DNA of 11,065 nucleotides. Origin: Leucogyrophana mollusca. Its lineage: Eukaryota > Basidiomycota > Agaricomycetes > Boletales. Location: positions 1-11,065 of the forward strand of contig MU266855.1 of NCBI GenBank assembly GCA_021014945.1. Reading direction: 5' to 3'. Positions 1-11,065 of this stretch are shown here, one piece after another; position 1 is the stretch's first letter, and every line of letters begins with the position of its first letter. The notes under the pieces are model-generated. The model saw nothing but the letters and a program-made list of their open reading frames with translations. It was not told the DNA's origin and did no database searches. A program made the translations under genes and the position numbers.

Positions 1-340
1 GTGGCTGCAACCCAAGGAGACTTTGGGTCGTCCTTGTAACGGAACGCACAAATGAATGTGGAATGAGCGGATTGGAGCGGAATGATGGCGGACATAGCAG
101 CGTTTGGCGAGCATCAAGATATAATTAGCGTTGTGAATGATTGGACAGCGTCTGGTGACAGGATGTGGGGAAAATGAAAGAGATGCGCGAGTGCTTTGTG
201 TTTGTTTTAGTCGTTGATGTCATAAATGCCGGCATGCTGTAATAAGACGAATATAGCGAGCGAGGATTGTTTGGATAGGGAATTAATGAATGGTGATTGT
301 CCTGCGCTGTATTTGGGATGATAGGTTCGTCAATAATCCA
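1..340. other. Non-coding stretch with no recognised feature
   Basis: I see no gene here. Open frames on both strands are short and low in complexity and resemble no family I know. The base composition differs from the A/C-rich plus strand of the LINE fragment that begins near 340-370, so this is probably the sequence into which the LINE tail is embedded, or an older unrelated repeat. A 5-bp stem (cccaa/ttggg) near position 11 is too small to interpret. Confidence 0.5.
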
Positions 341-1932
341 TGTTCTCGCTACCAAACACTTTTGGTGCGTGACACCGAATAAAGACAACCTCACACTAAC
401 ACACACGAGAAGTGAGAAAAATAACCAAGCACTAAGAACAGGAAGAGGAGAAGTCATTTTCAATCCATCAACCACAACCACTACAAACTTAGAAGACGGA
501 TTTAGAATTCTATGCCCAAAAGAAAAAATATCGGACCAACTGGCCTAGCACCCACAACAACCACAAAGGGGCAGCATTAATCTAAACGACAAACTACATA
601 TATATACAGACGGTTCATGCAAGAACAACGGTAAACAAAACGCAATATGCGGAAGCGGCATATGGTTCAGACTGAACGACAATAGAAACACCCAAGTAAG
701 AATCCCAGGACTCAGACAATCAAACCAAGCAGGAGAGATCGCAGCTCTAATTATTGCTGCCCAAATATGTGACCCATACACACTGATATCAATCATAACA
801 GACTCAAAATATGTAATCTCGGGACTAACAAAACACATACAATTCTGGGAAGATATGGGATGGATAGGAATCCAAAACCGAAACCTCTTCGAAGCCGCAG
901 CCTACCAACTTAGGAAAAGAGCCGCGCAAACCACACTAAAATGGATTAAAGGCCACAGTGGAGACGAAGGCAACAAAGGAGCAGACGCGCTAGCAAACCA
1001 AGGGGTACAGACACCGATACCAGACAACATAGACATCACAATACCAACACACTTTAAACCGGTGCAAGGTGCTAAACTACAAGCAATGACACAATCAATC
1101 GCATACCAAGGAATAAGAGAAACAATAATAACTACACCCAGAAGATCATCTATAATAAACCTTGATATAACACGCTTCGCAATAAATGCAATCACTGAGA
1201 CCTGGGAAACAGACGAGAAAATATGGAAATCATGCAAACTCAAACCCCTAACACAAACACAAGTCAATTCCTATTCAGAATGCTTCAAGGATCCGTCAAA
1301 ATAGGCGACTACTGGAATAAAATAACAAACTATGAACAACGAGCAAAATGCCAAGCATGCAGGCACGCAGAAGAATCAATGGATCACACCCTACCAGAAT
1401 GTACACAAAACGGCCAAAATGAAATATGGTCACAAGCAAAGGACCTATGGAATAACAAAAACATTAACTGGCCAACAATAAACCTCGGAACAATAATGGG
1501 ATGCGGCCTAATAAATCTAGCCACCCCTAAAAATCAAAATGCCCCGAGAAACCCCCATGAAGAATCAAAAACAAAAGGAAACTCACGTCTCCTAAAAATA
1601 CTAATCTCCAAATCCGCCCACCTAATCTGGGCCACAAGATGTGACCGAACGATAAATGGGAATCCTAACCCCCCCCCGACAATGATATCAAAATGGTCCC
1701 ACCTATAACCAAACACTTCACTATTGACCGCCTCCGTGTACTAAACAAAACAGACAAACACCATAAGAAACAAGAGATACTAACTCAGCACACCTGGACA
1801 GGTACAATCCAAAATGAACTAGACCTACCACAAGATTGGGTGACCACCCGTGAGGTTTTAGTGGGTTTAAAGCCGCCCAGGCCCTCTCCTCAAGAGGCAA
1901 CCAGGCGTCTTGAAAGCCCCACACTCCCGTGA
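297..1932 (+). pseudogene. LINE ORF C-terminal part: RNase H, CCHC knuckle and tail (broken)
   Basis: The RNase H type I domain degrades the RNA strand of RNA-DNA hybrids during retrotransposition. It runs from about 594 to 1005 and retains the five hallmark residues: Asp at 609 (YTDGSC), Glu at 735 (GEIAAL), Asp at 801 (TDSKYV), His at 954 (KGHSGD) and Asp at 984 (GADALANQ). The same frame runs from 297 to 1304 with one internal TAG at 546-548. A one-base frameshift between about 1225 and 1265 moves coding to the frame of 1223-1708. That frame carries a CX2CX8HX4C knuckle (1349-1402) and a typical GDYWNKI segment just before it. A second shift near 1695-1708 leads into the final segment, which ends at the TGA at 1930-1932 and has a typical LPQDWVTTREVLVGL tail. 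Position 297 is only the first codon after an in-frame stop, not a true start. The reverse transcriptase is missing. The gene is dead, although RNase H alone could fold if expressed from a codon after the TAG. Confidence 0.85.
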
Positions 1933-2065
1933 AAGCGGGGTGCGGCTGCGCATTTTCCCTCAGACCGGCCCTGAGTGCCGAATTAGCAATTATGGAGAAC
2001 TCGTTAATTTACAGTTGCTACATAATAAAATTGCTCGTCTAAAAACAAAAATTTTATGAATTAAA
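340..2065 (+). mobile_element. 5'-truncated non-LTR retrotransposon (LINE) remnant
   Basis: This is the 3' end of a LINE. It holds the C-terminal RNase H domain, the CCHC knuckle region and the terminal tail of the main ORF, then a 3' UTR with hairpins and an A-rich run (about 2040-2068). The endonuclease and reverse transcriptase that should lie upstream are absent, which is the usual outcome of incomplete target-primed reverse transcription. The left limit is set only by the change in composition near 340-370. The right limit is set only by the A-rich run; I found no target-site duplication. The plus strand is strikingly rich in A and C, unlike the other elements in the window. Confidence 0.75.
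1883..1975 (+). other. Three short hairpins at the LINE ORF end and 3' UTR
   Basis: Three stem-loops lie within about 90 bases. The first is cctct/agagg with a 5-nt loop at 1883-1897. The second is cac-t-cccg / cggg-gtg with one bulged T and a 6-nt loop at 1922-1942. The third is ctcag/ctgag with a 7-nt loop at 1959-1975. The ORF's TGA (1930-1932) lies in the second loop. Many LINEs carry a 3' stem-loop that their reverse transcriptase binds to start copying. Assigning that role here is inference from position. Confidence 0.4.
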
Positions 2066-2353
2066 AGCCGCATTCGGAACGAGCGGGACAAGCATTTCGG
2101 AAACAGTTGTAAGTGTTTAGGCCATCTGCAAGCATCATTAGGGGAGCTCACAGTAGACCGCTTTCGCTGTCGTGGCCGCTGTCACTGTCAGTGGCTGTGC
2201 GAAGATATCCCAAATATAGACATATATTGACATATCCCACTAATTATTAAATAAAGCCAACTTGAGCCGCCTGCCGTGGACCTTGCCGCTCGTCTCTTCC
2301 CCGTCGTGTATTACATAATCAAATACCGCAGTTTTGCCTCAGACCACCACACA
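1933..2353. other. Non-coding gap between LINE ORF and Harbinger transposase
   Basis: The left part is the LINE 3' UTR with its A-rich run near 2040-2068. The right part should hold the 5' end and promoter of the Harbinger element. I could not find a convincing terminal inverted repeat or a TTA/TAA target duplication by eye. An 11-bp odd palindrome, cactgtcagtg, lies near 2186-2196. Confidence 0.4.
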
Positions 2354-3391
2354 ATGGCTCGCACTTCATTACACCAACAACACCTAGCCTCATATATCCT
2401 CTTTATGATCATCCGAGCACTCTTTCAGCCTGCCAAGGACCTCGAGGATGTTGCCCGAGAGCTCGATCTTGATATCAACTGCATCTTAGCAATACAACAA
2501 GCACGCTACCTGCATGCTCGACCACCTGTTCGCAAGGCGGGAAGCTTGCACCTTGCATGGGAGTATGCACAGAGTCCTGCCGATCACCATCGCTTTGTAA
2601 ATATGCTACACATATCTCCCAAGGTGTTCCAGGCCATCCTTGGCCTGATTGAAGATCACCCAATATTCTACAACGAATCGAATACTCCACAAGAGTCGGT
2701 TGAGGTTCAGTTGGGTGTCACATTGTATCGCATGGGCCGATATGGGAATGGTGCCTCTTTGGAGGACATTGCGCAGGTTGCAGGATGCTCTGAGGGTGCT
2801 GTGGAGAAGTACACTGATCGCTGTTTCCAAGCCATTGAATCACTTCATGAGGCATTTGTATGCCTCCCCGCATGGCTTGACGGATCTGCTCATGATGCCT
2901 GGGCATTTGAGCACACTGCAGCAGCAAAGTATCCTGAATGGTTCTTCAGTGGGGAAGAGTTTGCATGGGCAGACTCAGCCTATGTTGTAAACTCACACAC
3001 CATCCCAGTCCACAAAAAACCAGCTTCTCTTCAGCCCGAAAACATCGCATTCGATCAAGCAGTTGCTAACCTCCGCGTCCATTCAGAACATTGCATGGGT
3101 GCCCTCAAAGGGCAATTCCAGTGTTTTCGGGGGCTGTGAGTCAACATTAACTCCAAACGACAGCACATCGCTGCATGTCGCTGGATTACTGTTGGTATTA
3201 TATTGCATAATCTTGTTGTTGAGGTTGAAGGAGTCCAAAGGGGTGCACACTTTGCACCAATACATACCCATCAAGAGGAGGAGGAGGATTGGGGACCACC
3301 AGATGAGCCTTTGCTGGCAGAGGATGTTGGTGATGGTGATGCAAAACGACACAAACTGGTGGAGGAGCTACTTGCATTCCAGCAACTGTAA
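2354..3391 (+). pseudogene. PIF/Harbinger transposase (DDE_Tnp_4-like), internally deleted, one premature TGA
   Basis: The start is the ATG at 2354; the frame is open upstream to 2276 but without another ATG. One frame runs to the TAA ending at 3391 (345 codons), interrupted only by a TGA at 3137-3139. Residues about 135-163 (SLEDIAQVAGCSEGAVEKYT) form a helix-turn-helix typical of these transposases. The catalytic half starts abruptly. Residues near 172 (FVCLPAW) join directly to LDGSAHD, whereas the family normally has about 60-75 residues between these blocks, including the first catalytic Asp and the NYG-type segment. The second Asp (D207 in FAWADSAY) and the Glu (E245 in RVHSEHCMGALKG) are kept. 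After the TGA the family sequence VNIN...ITVGIILHNLVVEVEG continues in frame, followed by an acidic tail, so the TGA most likely replaced an Arg CGA. The enzyme is predicted to be inactive. Lengths of the missing block are from memory of the family. Confidence 0.85.
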
Positions 3392-3505
3392 ATAGACTAT
3401 TATCCAAATTGCAACAACAAGATTGACTATTGTAAGTCGAATGAATGGAAGGTGACAAACGAGTGGCAACAAATGAGTGGTAGGTGACCAGGGGTATCAC
3501 AGGAA

Positions 3506-4722
3506 TTAAGGCAATTTAATGTAGCGGTAAAAGGGTGTGTTACGGTGATTAAAATGATGTACCACCTCACTCCGAGAGGGCTGAAGTATCCCAATCAGGC
3601 GTACCTGTTTAAGAGGGCGCTCCAAGGGTGCCTCGTTGAGACTGCGGAGCTGCTCACAGTACTCAGCAGCATCCAAGATACCCGCCTTATACTAATCCAG
3701 CAGAAGTGCCCGCTTCTTGAGATTCATCTCTTCGCAGGCACGATTGTTGAGGGCATCAAGATTCGCCCTGGACATTTGTGAGAAATAAGCTTAATATAAC
3801 TAGGGGAGCTTACTTTTGAATTTTGAAAAGGGTATCATCAATTGTTCTCTTTTGCGGGATCTTCTGGATACGTCCCTTAGCCTTCAGTATGCTGTCCTGA
3901 GACAGCGACAATGGCTTGGGAGCCTTCTTCTGCGACGGTGTTGGGGTAGACGCAGTTAATAAGGTGGCATTCTCCTTATCGTCATCGACTTCAAGTGACG
4001 GAGAGCTCCCACGGTGAGTCATTTGCGCGAGGTTGAGTGCATCTTGGAGTGTCCGGATTTGGCCGATCTGTGATGATGTTAGTACAGGGAAATCCTCATC
4101 GTCACTCGGCGGCTGCATATGCAGTGTCTTCTTGCCATCGGGACCAATACCAGTCGTGACAGCAATTGGAGTCACGTTGGGACGAGCGGCGAAGATGCGG
4201 TGGAGCTCCAGAAAGAACACAAAGTCCCTCTTGATCTTTTCTGTAATAGTTTTGTTGATAGCGGCTATGATTTTGAGAAATCAAACATACCCCATATATT
4301 TTTGGCATCATTGGGGGTATTGTCATCAGGCCCATCTGCACCAATGTAAAAATCACAGAATTCGTCGTCGCTGCAGTTATCATCATTGCCGTCCTTGCGG
4401 AGGCCACCTCCTGTTGTGCGGAGCTTGGCGGCATGCCGTTTGTATGTTTTGGTGGGCCTGAAGCCAACGTGTGAGTGTGTAATGCAAAAATAACAAGATA
4501 ACGACATAACGATTCGATTTTCCCCTTGATTTGATCACCCGTTGCTGTTGGATTGATGGCATGGAACTCCGGAAGAATAACGGCCCCGACACGCTTGTAA
4601 ACGCTTGCCTTACTCTCTCCAGACGTGTTCTTCGAGTGCTCTGGGTCATTCGTGGTCAGCAGAACTCAAGTTAATTGACTTACCTCATTTTTCTCCTTTT
4701 TAGCATCAGTAAATGAACACAT
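3506..4722 (-). pseudogene. Harbinger-associated partner protein (second ORF), four exons, two premature stops
   Basis: The gene is read on the minus strand. Proposed exons are 4722-4511, 4457-4291, 4240-3814 and 3767-3506, with GT-AG introns of 53, 50 and 46 nt. All phases match and the sum is 1068 nt (355 codons). Exon 1 carries a conserved-looking segment (YKRVGAVILPEFHAINPTA) that continues as TYKRHAAKLRTTGGGL in exon 2. Exon 3 adds DFVFFLELHRIFAARPNV and ITTGIGPDGKKT, then a Ser/Pro/Lys-rich linker. Exon 4 is a charged, helix-prone C-terminus (MNLKKRALLLD, then YKAGILDAAEY). I recognise this pattern from proteins next to Harbinger-type transposases in Agaricomycetes, presumably DNA-binding partners. 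A TGA (4668-4666) and a TAG (3694-3692) interrupt it. A conventional ORF caller would stop at 3810, inside the third intron. The ATG at 4722 is uncertain, since the frame is open upstream to about 4830. Confidence 0.7.
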
Positions 4723-5510
4723 TTCTTTTCCTACTTTTCCATGCTTTCCTACCTTTTCTTGCTTTCCCAGATTCCGGAGAAAGCAGTCCTTGTAGAGTAA
4801 AGCATAAATAAGTAGATTATTTTAGACAAGCAAGTTTAAGTAGCTGTTAATACAAAAAGCTACAAAGCATTAAAAAGGGCATTAATACAAATATTTCTCA
4901 TTGGCCATGATCACATGCGTGTGCTGTGTTGTGTGTCGTCACTGTCATTGGCGTGGCGTTGGAGCTTGGAAGAGCGGGAAAAACTGTGTGAATGCTGGTA
5001 AGGTAATACTTAGTCTCCGCTTGAATGACTTGTGGTTTTCGCGTAAGTGTTTCTTACTTTGCTTTCGCTCGCCATCCCGCTCCCTTGATCAAAAACTCTA
5101 CTTTCTACTTTCTGGTGCTGCCCCGACAACATACACGAATGCTTTTGCCTCCATCAACCAATGCTGCCCGAAAAGTGAATTGCAGGTTCGTCATAGGTCA
5201 TCATTACCTTCAGCACCATGCCTGCACCACTGCTCACCCATGTCACTCTCACAGCCTGCCAGTATTCCCCGAGTGACAAGGTCAAAACATTGACACTAGA
5301 GGTATGCATATTTTCGATCCTCACTTGCACAGTACTCATCATTGTGCCAACACCTCCCCACCTGTCATCTCATTGCCGCGCTGCCTACCCCACATTCATG
5401 TCAACTACCACCACCACTCTCAGGGTGTTCCGAAGATGAGCGGGCGCTCAGCTAAGGTTTTTCATTCCGTTTGATTCCCAATATCCCCTTATTGATTCCT
5501 GACCGTTTTT
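4723..5510. other. Non-coding stretch, probably Harbinger flank and old repeats
   Basis: No recognisable gene was found. The plus-strand frame 4901-5293 is cysteine-rich at its start but resembles nothing I know and has no plausible intron structure. The DNA is T/C-rich with recurring motifs of the ctactttt and ctttcctac kind (about 4730-4775 and 5095-5115). The right end of the Harbinger element and the promoter of its minus-strand gene should lie here, but I could not place them. Confidence 0.4.
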
Positions 5511-5568
5511 CAGCGCCGAACAGCGTTGAACAGCGTTGAACAGCGTTGAACAGCGTTGAACAGCGCTT
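5511..5568. repeat. Minisatellite, 10-bp unit cagcgttgaa
   Basis: Four perfect tandem copies of cagcgttgaa fill 5521-5560. They are preceded by one degenerate copy (cagcgccgaa, 5511-5520) and followed by a partial copy (cagcgctt, 5561-5568). Exact copies suggest recent expansion by slippage. Short tandem arrays just inside transposon ends can also be transposase binding sites, but nothing here ties the array to a particular element. Confidence 0.9.
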
Positions 5569-5616
5569 TACTTTGCTTATCTCCCTCCTTTATCATGATT
5601 TTCACACCGTCTATCC

Positions 5617-5638
5617 TTCTACTTTAATTCTACTTTAA
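5617..5638. repeat. Tandem duplication of an 11-bp unit (ttctactttaa)
   Basis: Two perfect adjacent copies are present at 5617-5627 and 5628-5638. Related ctactttt motifs recur through 4730-5780, which suggests the region derives from one degenerate AT-rich repeat. Confidence 0.7.
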
Positions 5639-5747
5639 TTATGACTTTTCCATACTTTGCCTGCAATACAGTGTGCTTTCCCCGTCTCGCGAAAAGCATG
5701 AGAAAGAACTAGAAAGTCAAGGCTAAGTTAAAATATGGAGCGGGATC

Positions 5748-5835
5748 TACTTAATTAAGTAACTTTCTACTTTTCCGTGGTTTACTTAAAAACTGCTTTA
5801 TTGTACTTAATTTGAAGTGAAAGTTGTGGAAAAGT
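5748..5835. repeat. Palindrome and imperfect inverted repeat (MITE-like)
   Basis: A 14-bp perfect palindrome, tacttaattaagta, lies at 5748-5761. It is followed by arms acttttcc (5769-5776) and ggaaaagt (5828-5835) that can pair and extend imperfectly in both directions, enclosing about 50 bases. The arrangement resembles a small foldback element. No flanking target duplication was identified. Confidence 0.4.
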
Positions 5836-5853
5836 TAGTTAAGTGACTTCAAC

Positions 5854-5872
5854 AGCAATCTAACAGATTGCT
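5854..5872. terminator. 7-bp stem-loop followed by a T-rich run, downstream of the Plavaka gene
   Basis: A perfect stem agcaatc/gattgct with a 5-nt loop lies 100 bases beyond the minus-strand Plavaka stop. On the plus strand it is followed by T-rich sequence (5873-5900). Stem plus T-run is a bacterial terminator shape and has no established meaning in a fungal genome, so a role in termination is unlikely. It is listed for its structure and its place in the palindrome cluster. Confidence 0.2.
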
Positions 5873-5904
5873 TGTCTTCTTTTTTCGGGTTTTTTGAACC
5901 TTTT

Positions 5905-5953
5905 GTCTTGTCGACAAGACCACAGGCTTGCAAGACCGACAAGCTACGACAAG
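5905..5953. repeat. 16-bp perfect palindrome with three direct CGACAAG repeats
   Basis: The sequence gtcttgtcgacaagac at 5905-5920 is its own reverse complement. The heptamer cgacaag occurs at 5912-5918, 5937-5943 and 5947-5953, and inverted at 5908-5914. The cluster ends 20 bases from the Plavaka stop codon. Clusters of short direct and inverted repeats next to the ends are typical of CACTA-like and KDZ-like transposons, where they bind transposase. That role is inference here. Confidence 0.6.
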
Positions 5954-5972
5954 AACTGATAAAGGTCAGATA

Positions 5973-8900
5973 TCAAGCCAAGAATTCGTGCATATGATGA
6001 TCAGCGTATCTACTAACATAGAAAGCATGAAAAGCATCCAAACTCTCCGAAAAGTGTAAATCCTCGGGTAAAAAACTGGCGCTGTACACTGGGAGTAAAT
6101 GGGCTGCACGAGCGACAGAATCCAGATGAACGACAGCCATGCTTTGTCGGCCTGAAGCTCCATACTCTGGTCTTACCGCCCACATCCCTGTTTCCTCGTC
6201 AGCTTCCTCCCCAATGGGCACGAACCAATGCACTAGAGCGCACGGGTAAACACGGCTGTGAAAAGTGAACGAAAAGAAGAGATAGACACGTCTGATCACC
6301 ATGCCCAACATGCCCTCATCCTCTGCCTGTGTGGTGACAAACACCGTGTCTCTTCGAACATATTCACCGCGCCATGATGGGTTCAACCGAATATATTCTC
6401 TGTGCATGCCCCCTGCACCACATAAGTCACTCGGCGCATAGAACTGGGCCACTGCAGAGTGAAATACTGACACACGGACGTTGAAGTGAGGACACAGGTC
6501 GAGGGCAACGTCTGCGGATGAATGTACAGCATCCGGGTTTTCCTGGTCATAGAGAAATCGGCAGATAAGTTCAGGTAGCCATGGCTGGTTGATGTGTGCT
6601 GCGAGGTCGTCGAGGTTCTTTGGATACCCTCGTTCTATAGACTGCATTAGGGTAATTCTCACATGCAATAAAGGGGACTCACAAGGTGTTCAAGCAAGTT
6701 CCATAGAAGACAACACTTTTGGCCCCATTGCAGGTCCACACTCGTCATCGTCATCATCATCTATTGGAGACGGCGGCCGTGGTTGTTCACCATTTGCGAT
6801 ACAAATAGTATATGAAAGGGTTGTCCCTTCTATCATCCCACGTGCAGTAAAATTTTGACGGGCAGCAGCTATCTTATCGAGGCGACAATTTGTACGCAGC
6901 ATTTGTATGAGCGCCTTGAACCGATTTGAACACCGCCACGGCTCTTTGACAGCCTTGATGTGTTTCGACTCCGTGATAGAGGAGCACAACCCATTTGGGG
7001 ACCCGAAAAGCCGAATGGAGCGAGGATAGTGCTTAAGTGAGTGTTGGCGCAGGAGAGAGATGTCATCACAAACACCTGTGGTGATGAAGACTTCGCGGTA
7101 ACGATGAAAGCGTGAGAGGGCCGCTTCGAGCTGCTCGAGCGTCGCCATACTGATTACATTTCGGCGTGCGAGATAACAGAAGTCCAGAAAGGCTGCCAGG
7201 CACTTGACCATATCTGCCGGTACATGTCCTGTGATGGCGGGAAGATAAACCTACAGTTTAAACGGCGTCAGACACATCAACGTTACCTAAATGTTAGACA
7301 CACCTTCATCAATGCCTTTGAATCATCCCCGGTCCATTGCGAGAAATCACGTCCATCAGGGAAGCACCGTATACCTGGGAATGCAGGCACGACTGAAATT
7401 CTGATACCTGACTGGAGCAAACCATCGGAATATTATTGAGATTCACTTACCATCGGTCAATATCATCAATGATCGCATTTGCACGAGTCTCACCGTGGAC
7501 CACATAGAGATACTCATTGACCCATGAGACAATATGATCCTTGAATGTGCCTTTGATGACCTGATGCAGCAAGTCTGGTGACAGTAACTCATGGATGTCT
7601 GCACGAGGAAATTGGTGGGTAAAAGGCTATGGGAAAATGATATTCAATATGCAAGACCAAAAAATGACATGGAAGCTTACGAGGATGTCAGCACGAACAC
7701 CAAAATCGTCCCAAAGGGTGCTGGTATTGAATGATCTCTTCAAGAAGCTGGTCTTCTGCGGAGATCGCCGAAGCGCACCCTCCACATCAAGGTTTTCTGG
7801 GCGAGCATCACATCTGAATATATAGTGAGCAATCCAACGTGAAGTAAGATATACTGAGGCCGTACTTTGGACACCATCCTTGCACAATTCCCGACAACCA
7901 AACTTGCTCTGGGTAGTCAGCAATGTACAGCCCAATGCCATAGATAACTCTGTGAAAGTGGCCATCAGCAAACCGAACTACTTCGGGAGTTGTCATGCCT
8001 TCCCGCAATGGTTCGTAAACACGCGCAAGGGCAGCGTGGTACATTTGCCTGCAAAATTTCTGATATACGGCGGTTTTTCTATGTTTCCTTGTTGCTGCAT
8101 GATATGAGCAAACATACACGATGGAGATGACTAAGAATCCTACTTTTTGGAATCGGGAGAAAGGCCACAGGTAGGAGACCATTCCCATGTGCACGACGAG
8201 CAGTGTTTGTCAAGACCCCAGGAGACATATATACCGGGTGGAACTCTTGATGTCCAGTAGCAACCGAGACTGTGGTCTTGTCGCTACCAGCAATGATGGG
8301 TATGAAAGCTGCACCATGGGTGGTAGGATCTTCTGATATCATGTCCTTTGGGCCGTAAATTAGAAAGTACGAGAAATTTGAAGATTAACCTTACTGCCTG
8401 CCTCCACACCCAGTCTGCTGACATGAGGTTTGACCACATGCGGTGGCCACTGTTGTTGAATTGTTGATATGGGGCACAGTTCATGCTGTCCTTGAACTCC
8501 GGTGCCGAAAGCTGATTATGCAAAAGTCGCCTCGCATCCCGGGTACAGAGCTCATAAGTCTCTGTCATCCACTTTGGTGGTGTCCCGGGAGGGAGGGGGC
8601 CAGTATAACGGATCTTGAAAGCCTTCCATGGTGCATCACCAGCCTGAATGTCGTCAATGGTTTGGTAGAGTTCCTCAGCAGAACCCCAAGGAGGCTTGGC
8701 CCCGAAATCATACACCTGGGCAGCCCACATGTCCAGCGCTCTGTCGATCTCACCTTCGGAAGTCTGGACTTCAACAAAATGATAATGGGCAAAATCAAAG
8801 TCGGTTCGCGAAGTAAACGGATGCCATGCATTCATGGATTCGGCTTGATCATAGGTCAGTGCTGCTGGGTCGAATGACGGGGGTGCACCAGGCCGAAGAT

Positions 8901-9151
8901 CTTGACCATCTGCATCACATGGAGTACCTTCACAAGTACCTTATCACTACAGATAAAGGCGGTCCAAATTGACGAGACTCACCATTCAGAAGTGGATGGA
9001 AGTATTGCGTCGAGGCTGATCTGTCATCTTCAGGGTCAGATGCTGGTGAGATATCACGATGCTTTGCATTCCGGTGCTGCATGAGGCCCCGTGCACTCTT
9101 GAAGTTGCGGCGTGGGCAGTCAGAACAAGAATAAGTCATTGGAGGCATCAT
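5973..9151 (-). pseudogene. Plavaka-type DNA transposase, nine exons, broken by premature stops
   Basis: Proposed exons are 9151-8983, 8927-8395, 8345-8144, 8094-7866, 7813-7681, 7626-7451, 7400-7304, 7250-6683 and 6634-5973. All introns are 48-55 nt, phases match throughout, and the sum is 2769 nt (about 922 residues), a usual size for the family. The N-terminus has a C2H2-like finger (CSDCPRRNFKSARGLMQHRN). Next come TPCDADG, MNAWHPF, DWVWRQ, GSDKTTVSVATGHQEFHPVY and EGMTTPEVVRFADGHFHRVI. These are followed by ADYPEQVWL, QGWCPKCD, LLSPDLLHQVIKGTFKDH, LFGSPNGLCSSITESKHIKA and a C-terminal block with SVFHSAVAQFYAPSD and RAAHLLPVY. I recognise these as Plavaka transposase blocks. A TGA is created across the exon 6/7 junction, a second TGA lies at 6692-6690, and the exon 8/9 junction makes a TAA or a frameshift. 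The protein would excise and reinsert its transposon; this copy is dead. Confidence 0.9.
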
Positions 9152-9281
9152 GAAGCGGAGGTCAGACAGTTGAAGTAGTCACCGCCGTTTGCTTTGAAAA
9201 CTGACAGAAAACAAGACCAAATAATATATCTGAACTTGAAGATTTTCCGATACCCTCCGACAACCAAATCTTCACCAACCA
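9152..9281. promoter_or_regulatory. Shared 130-bp divergent promoter region
   Basis: The start codons of the minus-strand Plavaka gene (9151) and the plus-strand gene (9282) are only 130 bases apart, so any promoters must share this stretch. A TATA-like ataatatat lies at 9221-9229, about 55 bases before the plus-strand ATG. The sequence just before that ATG is C/A-rich (caccaaccaatg), a normal fungal start context. No repeats or clear factor sites are visible. Confidence 0.5.
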
Positions 9282-11065
9282 ATGCCTCCTCGGCGGCTAC
9301 CCACCCGCAAAAAGGCTGGAGACACCACCACCAGTGATCACCCGGGCAATGTAACTGTCACGGAGGAGTCATCAGCATCGGTGCCATCGACAATCGATGC
9401 AAGCGTACCTGTTCATGCGAAGACATCTGTTTCAGCCAATACAACTGCCAGTCAGAAGCGTGGTCGTGCTGCAAGTAGTGCTGAAGCACCAGCAATAAGC
9501 ACAAGCACTACTAAGAAGAGCAAAACCCAGGTTAGCCCTGCAGTACATGGTTAAAGCACCCATCAAAGAACTTACCGTTGTGTTGAAGCCGTTGCCATTG
9601 CGCTCTCCATTACCTCAGCGTGCTAAACAAGTCACAGATCCAGCTGGCCCTGACAAGCCACGACCCAAGCGCACATCTGCAGAGGTAGCGGCAGCAGCCA
9701 AACGCAAAGCTGAGTATCAGGAACGGCTTGCCATGCTAGAAAAGCAAAAGATTGAGATGCTGGCACAAATGGAAATCGAAGAAATGATGGCACAGGAAGC
9801 AGACGATTGTGCTGCAGTGATGTCAATTTCTGACCATCTGCGAAAAGATGACAAGATAGAAAGTAGGGCTCACAGTTACTCGGCCATGAGGACCCAGTTT
9901 CATAAAGTGTTTACCCATAGCCACACCTCAAGATGAAGTCGACGAGCCTATGGACATTGATGAGTTTGGAGATGAAGGAGAGGCGGAAACACCTACCGGG
10001 GCTGTTGGTAAGAAAATACCCACCGCAGTAGGTCTTTGTCCAGGCATAGATCTGCCTATTTGTTCTCAGTCGAGGAAATACACAGAAAAAGCAGAAGACA
10101 GCAAAGCATCAAACACGCTCAGCAGTTGATGAAGCAAAAGAGAGGTTACTCAAGGCCAATGCGGTTCTGAAAAGGTGTGGGAAGCACTCCTTTGTTTGTT
10201 ATTGGAAACTGACCAATCACATTGCTCTGCCAGTGCTAATGCGGCCACCAAGTCCACAATTCCCTCAGGACTGGTTGCGAACTGGGACAAGAAATGCATT
10301 CCCAGTGCACAAGTACCTGCCCCTTCTGGCCATCAGCAGAAGGGAAAGGGCAGGGCAGCAGCTGTGTCCTCTGAGTCACCAGTTGTGGGTGGCCTTGAAG
10401 ATGGTGACGTGTTTGATGATGGGCCTATCAGCGAGGGTCAGAACACAGAAAACGACGTGAGTTAATCATAAGCATTTCATGGTCTTACACTGACCGCCCT
10501 TCTTCGGGCAGTTTGCGACCATCAGTGATGACGGCTCGGACATTGCCTCTCAGCCCAAGGTCAAGAGTGTATCCCACTCCTCACGCAGTGCCTCACACGC
10601 TCCCAAGCGTAGCACTGGCAGCAAACCTGTCAAAGCCAAAATATCCGCTGCATCATCGCTGACTTCCTTGTCATCATCACCCGCCCCTGGTACAGCCACT
10701 TCCATGGAGACAGACAACCTCCCTGAATTTGCCAGAGCAGGCTGGGTTTCCGTCTTCCTGCCAACACTCTACCATCGCTGGGCAACTTCTGAAAAGCCGT
10801 GGGAACTCTGCAAAAAGACTCCCTTGCTTTTGCAAGCCATCCAAGAAGTCGTGGACACCTGTTTCCCTCATTGTGGTTATTATGCAAGCGGGTGGGATGT
10901 GCTTTGCCTCACAGTATGTGTCCATTACATCTGTCCATTCTGAATATTGATGAAAGATAGGCCTATAAATGATTGGGAGACAAGCTTTCATTCATTGGGA
11001 GTGTCAAAACCCATTAGCTCCGAGTCGTTCCGACGCTCAGGAGTCATGGTCCGATCAACTCCGGA
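9282..11065 (+). pseudogene. Uncharacterised Agaricomycete protein with coiled coil and C-terminal domain, head to head with Plavaka; partial, broken
   Basis: Proposed exons are 9282-9530, 9589-9862, 9921-10007, about 10075-10174, 10234-10456, 10512-10913 and 10961 to beyond the window. Introns are GT-AG, 47-67 nt. The N-terminus is basic and Ser/Thr-rich (PPRRLPTRKKAG), with likely nuclear-localisation patches (QKRGRA, KKSK). Exon 2 has a coiled coil of about 45 residues (KRTSAEVAAAAKRKAEYQER onward). Acidic and Ser-rich linkers follow, with a conserved-looking PSGLVANWDKK. The folded part begins in exon 6 (LPEFARAGWVSVFLPTLYHR) and continues in exon 7 (AYK, stop, LGDKLSFIGS). I know similar proteins from Agaricomycetes, perhaps DUF6532-like, but with no known function. 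A TGA at 10970-10972 interrupts it, probably a former CGA, and a TAG follows at 11015. The exon 4 acceptor is weak: the strong CAG at 10067-10069 gives the wrong frame. Confidence 0.65.
11018..11065. repeat. Imperfect direct repeat at the window edge
   Basis: Two related units start with gagtc (at about 11022 and 11040) and share tccga spaced similarly behind it. Similarity to the coding family of the gene starting at 9282 fades at about 11003-11015, so this may be the start of another repeat inserted in the gene. Only one edge is visible. Confidence 0.3.

What the first reader, a model, noticed from the sequence alone, without database searches (positions are those of the whole stretch)
297..11017. 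Almost all premature stops in five unrelated transposon genes fit C-to-T changes in Arg or Gln codons
After resolving introns, the frames are largely open and each internal stop sits where the family would carry Arg or Gln: TAG 546 (Gln?), TGA 3137 (Arg before VNIN), TGA 4668 and TAG 3694 on the minus strand (Gln in LLD-Q-YKAG), TGA across 7451/7400, TGA 6692, TGA 10970. Five are TGA from CGA, that is, loss of a CpG. The same decay across a LINE, a Harbinger pair and a Plavaka pair suggests methylated-CpG deamination or a RIP-like process in a basidiomycete. Caution: many stops can arise by C-to-T by chance, and the ancestral residues are inferred from memory of the families.
Basis: partly seen in the sequence, partly recalled or inferred. 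Interest (0 to 1): 0.75.

Follow-up and report, generated by a model that had tools for sequence, protein, structure and literature searches.

The report
CpG decay of fungal transposon remains

Summary
The suspected process is real, but the named stops are mostly not what shows it. A sibling copy of the Harbinger-like element (C318, 97%) gives a direct count: C-to-T at 42 of 278 CpG cytosines against 6 of 996 others (odds ratio 29, p 4.6e-23). A second repeat family (22 copies) agrees: 225 of 1167 against 57 of 2277. CpG observed/expected is 0.70 in the window against a mean of 0.99 in 15 other stretches. Of seven named stops, two are CGA in the sibling (3137; 4668 minus). One lies at an Arg that relatives write AGR, two cannot be decided, and both TAGs are contradicted: 3694 is Glu in the sibling, 546 aligns with Ile/Leu/Leu. 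The changes show no strand clustering. The genome has two DNMT1-type methylases with BAH domains upstream and a DNMT5-like one. Best reading: deamination of methylated CpG in silenced transposons of a probable basidiomycete, a published phenomenon. The CpA preference of ascomycete RIP is not met; a CpG-type RIP-like process is not excluded. Methylation was not measured.

The parts
1..377 (+). end of a dispersed repeat (LTR-like by inference: copies share an end near ...GTGACA and then differ); used as second mutation clock
   Evidence: 37 matches at 71-98% in the own genome, a capped list; ends and flanks; 22 copies aligned, window included
375..2051 (+). 5'-truncated LINE remnant: RNase H (549-1304), then a zf-RVT-like region in another frame (1199-1708)
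   Evidence: PF00075 E 1.4e-26; zf-RVT below its cut-off; relatives on C399, C377, C499, C79
546..548 (+). TAG stop; three relatives have Ile, Leu, Leu: C-to-T from Gln not supported
2139..4702 (.). Harbinger-like element, 3'-truncated, with a 5' terminal inverted repeat (about 2139-2300); sibling with two identical 162-bp TIRs on C318
2255..3391 (+). transposase remnant (DDE_Tnp_4), interrupted by TGA 3137 and by a 266-bp and a 1-bp deletion relative to the sibling near 2868-2881
   Evidence: PF13359 E 2.7e-15
3137..3139 (+). TGA stop; CGA in the sibling copy: CpG C-to-T
3506..4705 (-). second gene of the Harbinger-like element (no Pfam family in the three pieces scanned), with two stops and a 10-bp deletion at 3597 relative to the sibling
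3692..3694 (-). TAG stop; GAG (Glu) in the sibling copy: transversion, not C-to-T
4666..4668 (-). TGA stop; CGA in the sibling copy: CpG C-to-T
5973..9178 (-). Plavaka transposase remnant with introns; 8930-9178 holds a zinc-finger-like match below cut-off
   Evidence: PF18759 E 1.3e-28 and 5.4e-26; matches to 11 relatives
6690..6692 (-). TGA stop in frame; relatives Lys, Glu, Gln: origin undecided
7400..7452 (-). TGA split by an intron; Arg in relatives but AGR codons in 8 of 9
9240..11065 (+). gene remnant without a Pfam match over cut-off in four pieces scanned; includes the most CpG-depleted kilobase (10001-11000, o/e 0.42)
10970..10972 (+). TGA after a presumed intron; no relative, frame unsure

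Best explanation
The window is a nest of old transposons in a genome that is probably a basidiomycete's. Their CpG cytosines were methylated by methylases the genome encodes (DNMT1-type and DNMT5-like) and the methylated cytosines then deaminated one by one on both strands, giving CpG to TpG or CpA. Stops arise as a by-product where a CGA codon is hit (TGA); other damage came from deletions, frame changes and a transversion. Shown here: the CpG-specific substitutions, the CpG deficit, two TGA stops that are CGA in the sibling, and the methylase genes. Inferred: methylation itself, the role of these methylases, the phylum, and that the process is slow rather than pulsed.
For: C318 sibling to window: 42 of 64 substitutions are C-to-T at CpG; 42/278 CpG cytosines against 6/996 others, Fisher p 4.6e-23. 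Direction: 42 CpGs of C318 lost in the window against 5 CpGs of the window lost in C318. In the first gene 4 of 10 aligned CGA codons changed (3 to CAA, 1 to TGA) and 0 of 22 CAA/CAG/TGG codons became stops. Second family: 225/1167 against 57/2277, p 1.8e-61. CpG o/e 0.70 against 0.987 SD 0.075 in 15 stretches; 6 of 11 window kilobases at or below 0.70 against 0 of 70. No strand clustering: 26 runs, 21.2 expected; 121 against 120.2 over the 18 of 22 repeat copies with enough changes. Methylase pieces: C64 matches a solved chain deposited as DNA repair protein Rad8, E 5e-65 (I recall it as Cryptococcus DNMT5); C43 and C125 match DNMT1, with BAH domains upstream. Published CpG signature in basidiomycetes (PMC4352252, PMC4014442, passages seen).
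Against: Methylation was not measured. A mild TCG preference in the Harbinger pair (22/103 against 20/175; p 0.036) is not significant in the repeat family (50/217 against 172/935, p 0.13). CpG changes do not track other changes well among the repeat copies (Spearman 0.32, p 0.15), as a steady clock would. Four of 11 Plavaka relatives are not CpG-depleted (L002, L004, L006, L007 at 1.01-1.04). A run of 23 intact CpGs (2268-2772, permutation P 0.004, chosen after looking) is unexplained. The pair has no outgroup.
Confidence: 0.8

Rival explanations
1. A RIP-like, repeat-triggered process that mutates CpG in a pulse before meiosis.
For: The window's repeats are more depleted than 15 sampled stretches; weak TCG preference in the pair; CpG changes scale poorly with other changes among repeat copies.
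Against: No strand runs in the pair or over 18 repeat copies. The most depleted kilobase (10001-11000, o/e 0.42) has no other copy found by one 149-aa piece or by DNA except at 11002-11065 (39 of 94 candidates scored), though past copies cannot be excluded. The methylase genes found are DNMT1-type with BAH and DNMT5-like; no RID query was run.
Confidence: 0.12
2. Ordinary drift: stops and substitutions with a usual spectrum, CpG content low for compositional reasons.
For: Every stop has a C-to-T ancestor, so the stop list alone proves nothing; two of seven stops are contradicted.
Against: Odds ratio 29 at CpG between near-identical copies; replicated in a second family.
Confidence: 0.02
3. The sibling copy gained CpGs or was homogenised, so the direction of change is reversed.
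For: Only two copies, no outgroup; the TIRs of C318 are identical.
Against: 42 CpGs differ one way against 5 the other, and two of the 42 close reading frames in the window that are open in the sibling. The repeat family, counted from the majority base, shows the same sign.
Confidence: 0.03

Closest known systems
CpG-to-TpG decay of transposons in basidiomycetes (PMC4352252; Rhizoctonia solani AG8, PMC4014442; passages seen)
   Same: C-to-T chiefly at CpG, a DNMT1-class gene present (PMC4352252); [quoted passage not shown]
   Different: The three basidiomycetes of PMC4352252 had one DNMT1 gene each, here two DNMT1-type loci. In AG8 genes were hit too; here 15 unselected stretches have CpG o/e near 1
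Repeat-induced point mutation (RIP) of Pezizomycotina
   Same: C-to-T in repeats, disabling genes
   Different: RIP prefers CpA (PMC4352252); here CpA is 3/386 and CpG 42/278
MIP (methylation induced premeiotically)
   Same: methylation of repeats is presumed here
   Different: MIP only methylates (abstract of PMC4352252); not testable from sequence

Membership tests
methylated-CpG deamination | C-to-T excess confined to CpG | tested here: met
   42/278 against 6/996; 225/1167 against 57/2277
methylated-CpG deamination | both strands hit independently | tested here: met
   17 C-to-T and 25 G-to-A at CpG, runs not clustered
methylated-CpG deamination | genome encodes CpG methylases | tested here: met
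   DNMT1-type on C43 and C125 with BAH upstream, DNMT5-like on C64; activity and specificity not tested
methylated-CpG deamination | these cytosines carry methyl groups | not testable with these tools
   no methylation data held
RIP (Pezizomycotina) | CpA preference | tested here: not met
   CpA 3/386, CpG 42/278
RIP (Pezizomycotina) | RID/Masc1 methylase | tested here: inconclusive
   PF00145 search: 4 matches at three loci, two DNMT1-type with BAH and one DNMT5-like; no RID sequence was used as query
RIP-like of Pucciniomycotina | TCG preference | tested here: inconclusive
   p 0.036 in the pair, p 0.13 in the repeat family
RIP or RIP-like | acts on duplicated DNA | tested here: inconclusive
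   a part without another copy found is depleted, but past copies cannot be excluded

The most novel reading that the evidence does not exclude
A repeat-aimed mutagenic CpG process acts in this basidiomycete and spares the promoter and 5' coding part of the Harbinger-like transposase (23 consecutive intact CpGs at 2268-2772 between decayed flanks), so that decay patterns would map an unmethylated hole in a silenced transposon.
Probability: 0.08. Interest if true: 0.5.

Novelty: new member of a known kind. Interest (0 to 1): 0.2.

Why it matters
It is a clean, countable case of CpG decay in two unrelated element families of one fungus, and it shows that counting C-to-T-compatible stops is no test: of the seven stops named, 2 are proven and 2 contradicted, while the substitution spectrum settles the point. 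It adds little to what is published on basidiomycete transposons.

Tried and rejected
Site-specific LINE insertion into the 1-377 repeat was considered, because a second LINE copy (C79) also abuts its end. Rejected: the repeat is followed by many different flanks and the two LINE junctions differ (about 375 against 1172), so the repeat more likely inserted into LINEs.

TGA 6692 as an out-of-frame artefact was considered, because another frame reads through to an intron.

A scan of genome contigs (bacteria and archaea) for a Plavaka piece found no relative, which says nothing about fungi. Of the last gene, one piece (10494-10943) was searched in the genome without finding a relative, and four pieces gave no Pfam match over cut-off. 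The large protein search, structure prediction and fold search were not used. No RID query was run.

Spread of decay into flanks was not tested. The background stretches are positions in long contigs, not checked to be single-copy genes. No outgroup was available for the Harbinger pair. From the repeat family I left out 5 more distant copies (71-77%) with loci and 11 matches without a locus, of 37. Internal stops in Plavaka matches (35 TGA, 26 TAA, 19 TAG by my tally) were not used, because introns are read through.

Full report
What the window is. The window is the whole of contig C517 (11,065 bases) in a 32.3-Mb, 545-contig genome. It holds the end of a dispersed repeat (1-377), a 5'-truncated LINE, a Harbinger-like element, a Plavaka transposase remnant and a gene remnant without a Pfam match over cut-off. 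A basidiomycete is inferred from 96 exon-by-exon Plavaka matches (94 over cut-off) and a DNMT5-like piece whose match I recall as the Cryptococcus enzyme.

Direct test by sibling copy. One close copy of the Harbinger-like element was found, on C318 (97%), with two identical 162-base TIRs. Over 2564 aligned bases there are 64 substitutions, and 42 are C-to-T at CpG (both strands counted) in the direction C318 to window. Rates are 42 of 278 CpG cytosines, 3 of 386 CpA, 0 of 303 CpC and 3 of 307 CpT; CpG against the rest gives odds ratio 29 and p 4.6e-23. Of 138 CpGs of C318, 42 are lost in the window; of 101 CpGs of the window, 5 are lost in C318. There is no outgroup.

Replication. The 1-377 repeat was aligned in 22 copies, window included; 5 more distant copies with loci and 11 matches without a locus, of 37 matches in all, were left out. 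Counted from the majority base, C-to-T is found at 225 of 1167 CpG positions and 57 of 2277 other C/G positions (p 1.8e-61). Related copies share changes, so these are not independent events. Of 32 CpG sites in the reference, 31 are decayed in at least one copy.

Composition. CpG observed/expected is 0.702 in the window against a mean of 0.987 (SD 0.075, range 0.83-1.16) in 15 stretches (70 kb) from long contigs; 6 of 11 window kilobases and 0 of 70 background kilobases are at or below 0.70. These stretches were not checked to be single-copy genes. Of 11 Plavaka relatives (loci with flanks), four show 1.01-1.04 and the others 0.66-0.94, so decay varies between copies. The C318 element itself stands at 0.86.

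The seven stops. CGA in the sibling: 3137 (+) and 4668 (-). Contradicted: 3694 (-), GAG in the sibling, and 546, Ile/Leu/Leu in three relatives of 46-52% identity. Ambiguous: the split stop at 7451/7400, where 8 of 9 relatives have Arg as AGR and one reads as His, so a single A-to-T from AGA is as short a path as C-to-T from CGA. Undecided: 6692 (Lys, Glu, Gln in the 3 of 7 relatives that align there) and 10970 (no relative). Any stop can be written as a C-to-T product of CAA, CAG or CGA, so a fit without a known ancestor is no evidence; CpG loss in one step gives TGA only. In line with this, the first gene of the Harbinger-like element has 10 aligned CGA codons of which 4 changed (1 to TGA), and 22 CAA/CAG/TGG codons of which none became a stop. 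In the genome's RVT_1 and rve matches 11 of 17 internal stops are TGA (my tally; binomial p 0.008 against one third; one third is a crude expectation). In Plavaka matches the share is lower, 35 of 80 (my tally), but introns are read through there.

Other damage. Relative to the sibling, the Harbinger copy has 266-base, 1-base and 10-base deletions and lacks the 3' end. The LINE is 5'-truncated and changes frame twice where relatives on C399 and C79 stay in one frame. C-to-T stops are one lesion among several.

Mechanism. The changes fall on both strands without runs (26 runs, 21.2 expected; 121 against 120.2 over the 18 of 22 repeat copies with at least five changes of both kinds), as independent deaminations would. 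The genome has DNMT1-type methylases at C43 and C125, with BAH matches upstream of each, and a DNMT5-like one at C64. Passages of PMC4352252 state that its three basidiomycetes show only the CpG signature and suggest deamination of methylated cytosine. Passages of PMC4014442 describe CpG-biased hypermutation in Rhizoctonia solani AG8 and name TGA as the primary nonsense product. PMC12543289 was searched by terms; it has no occurrence of 'CpG' in the text held. The CpA preference that defines ascomycete RIP is not met. A CpG-type RIP-like process remains possible. Weak points: CpG changes correlate poorly with other changes among repeat copies (Spearman 0.32, p 0.15); the mild TCG preference in the pair (p 0.036) is not significant in the repeat family (p 0.13); and a stretch of 23 intact CpGs (2268-2772) is unexplained.

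Verdict. The inference is right in kind and known in print; the stop-codon argument for it is mostly wrong or empty. Interest is low.

Noticed in passing
window 2268-2772: 23 consecutive CpGs intact between decayed flanks in the Harbinger copy (permutation P 0.004, chosen after looking); an unmethylated stretch, conversion or chance.
   Followed up: partly
window 1-377: Dispersed repeat; at least 14 of its 37 matches begin or end within about 110 bases of a contig end. It abuts LINE remnants both here and on C79, at different LINE positions.
   Followed up: partly
window 2868-2881 and 3597: 266-base, 1-base and 10-base deletions relative to the C318 copy, the first removing a central part of the transposase with an intron.
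   Followed up: partly
window 5511-5570: Short tandem array of a 10-base unit (cagcgttgaa), first and last units variant (read).
   Followed up: no
window 5752-5849: 98-base stretch 97% identical to C56:139956-140053.
   Followed up: no
window 11002-11065: 64-base match (92%) on C245, 186 bases from a copy of the 1-377 repeat.
   Followed up: no
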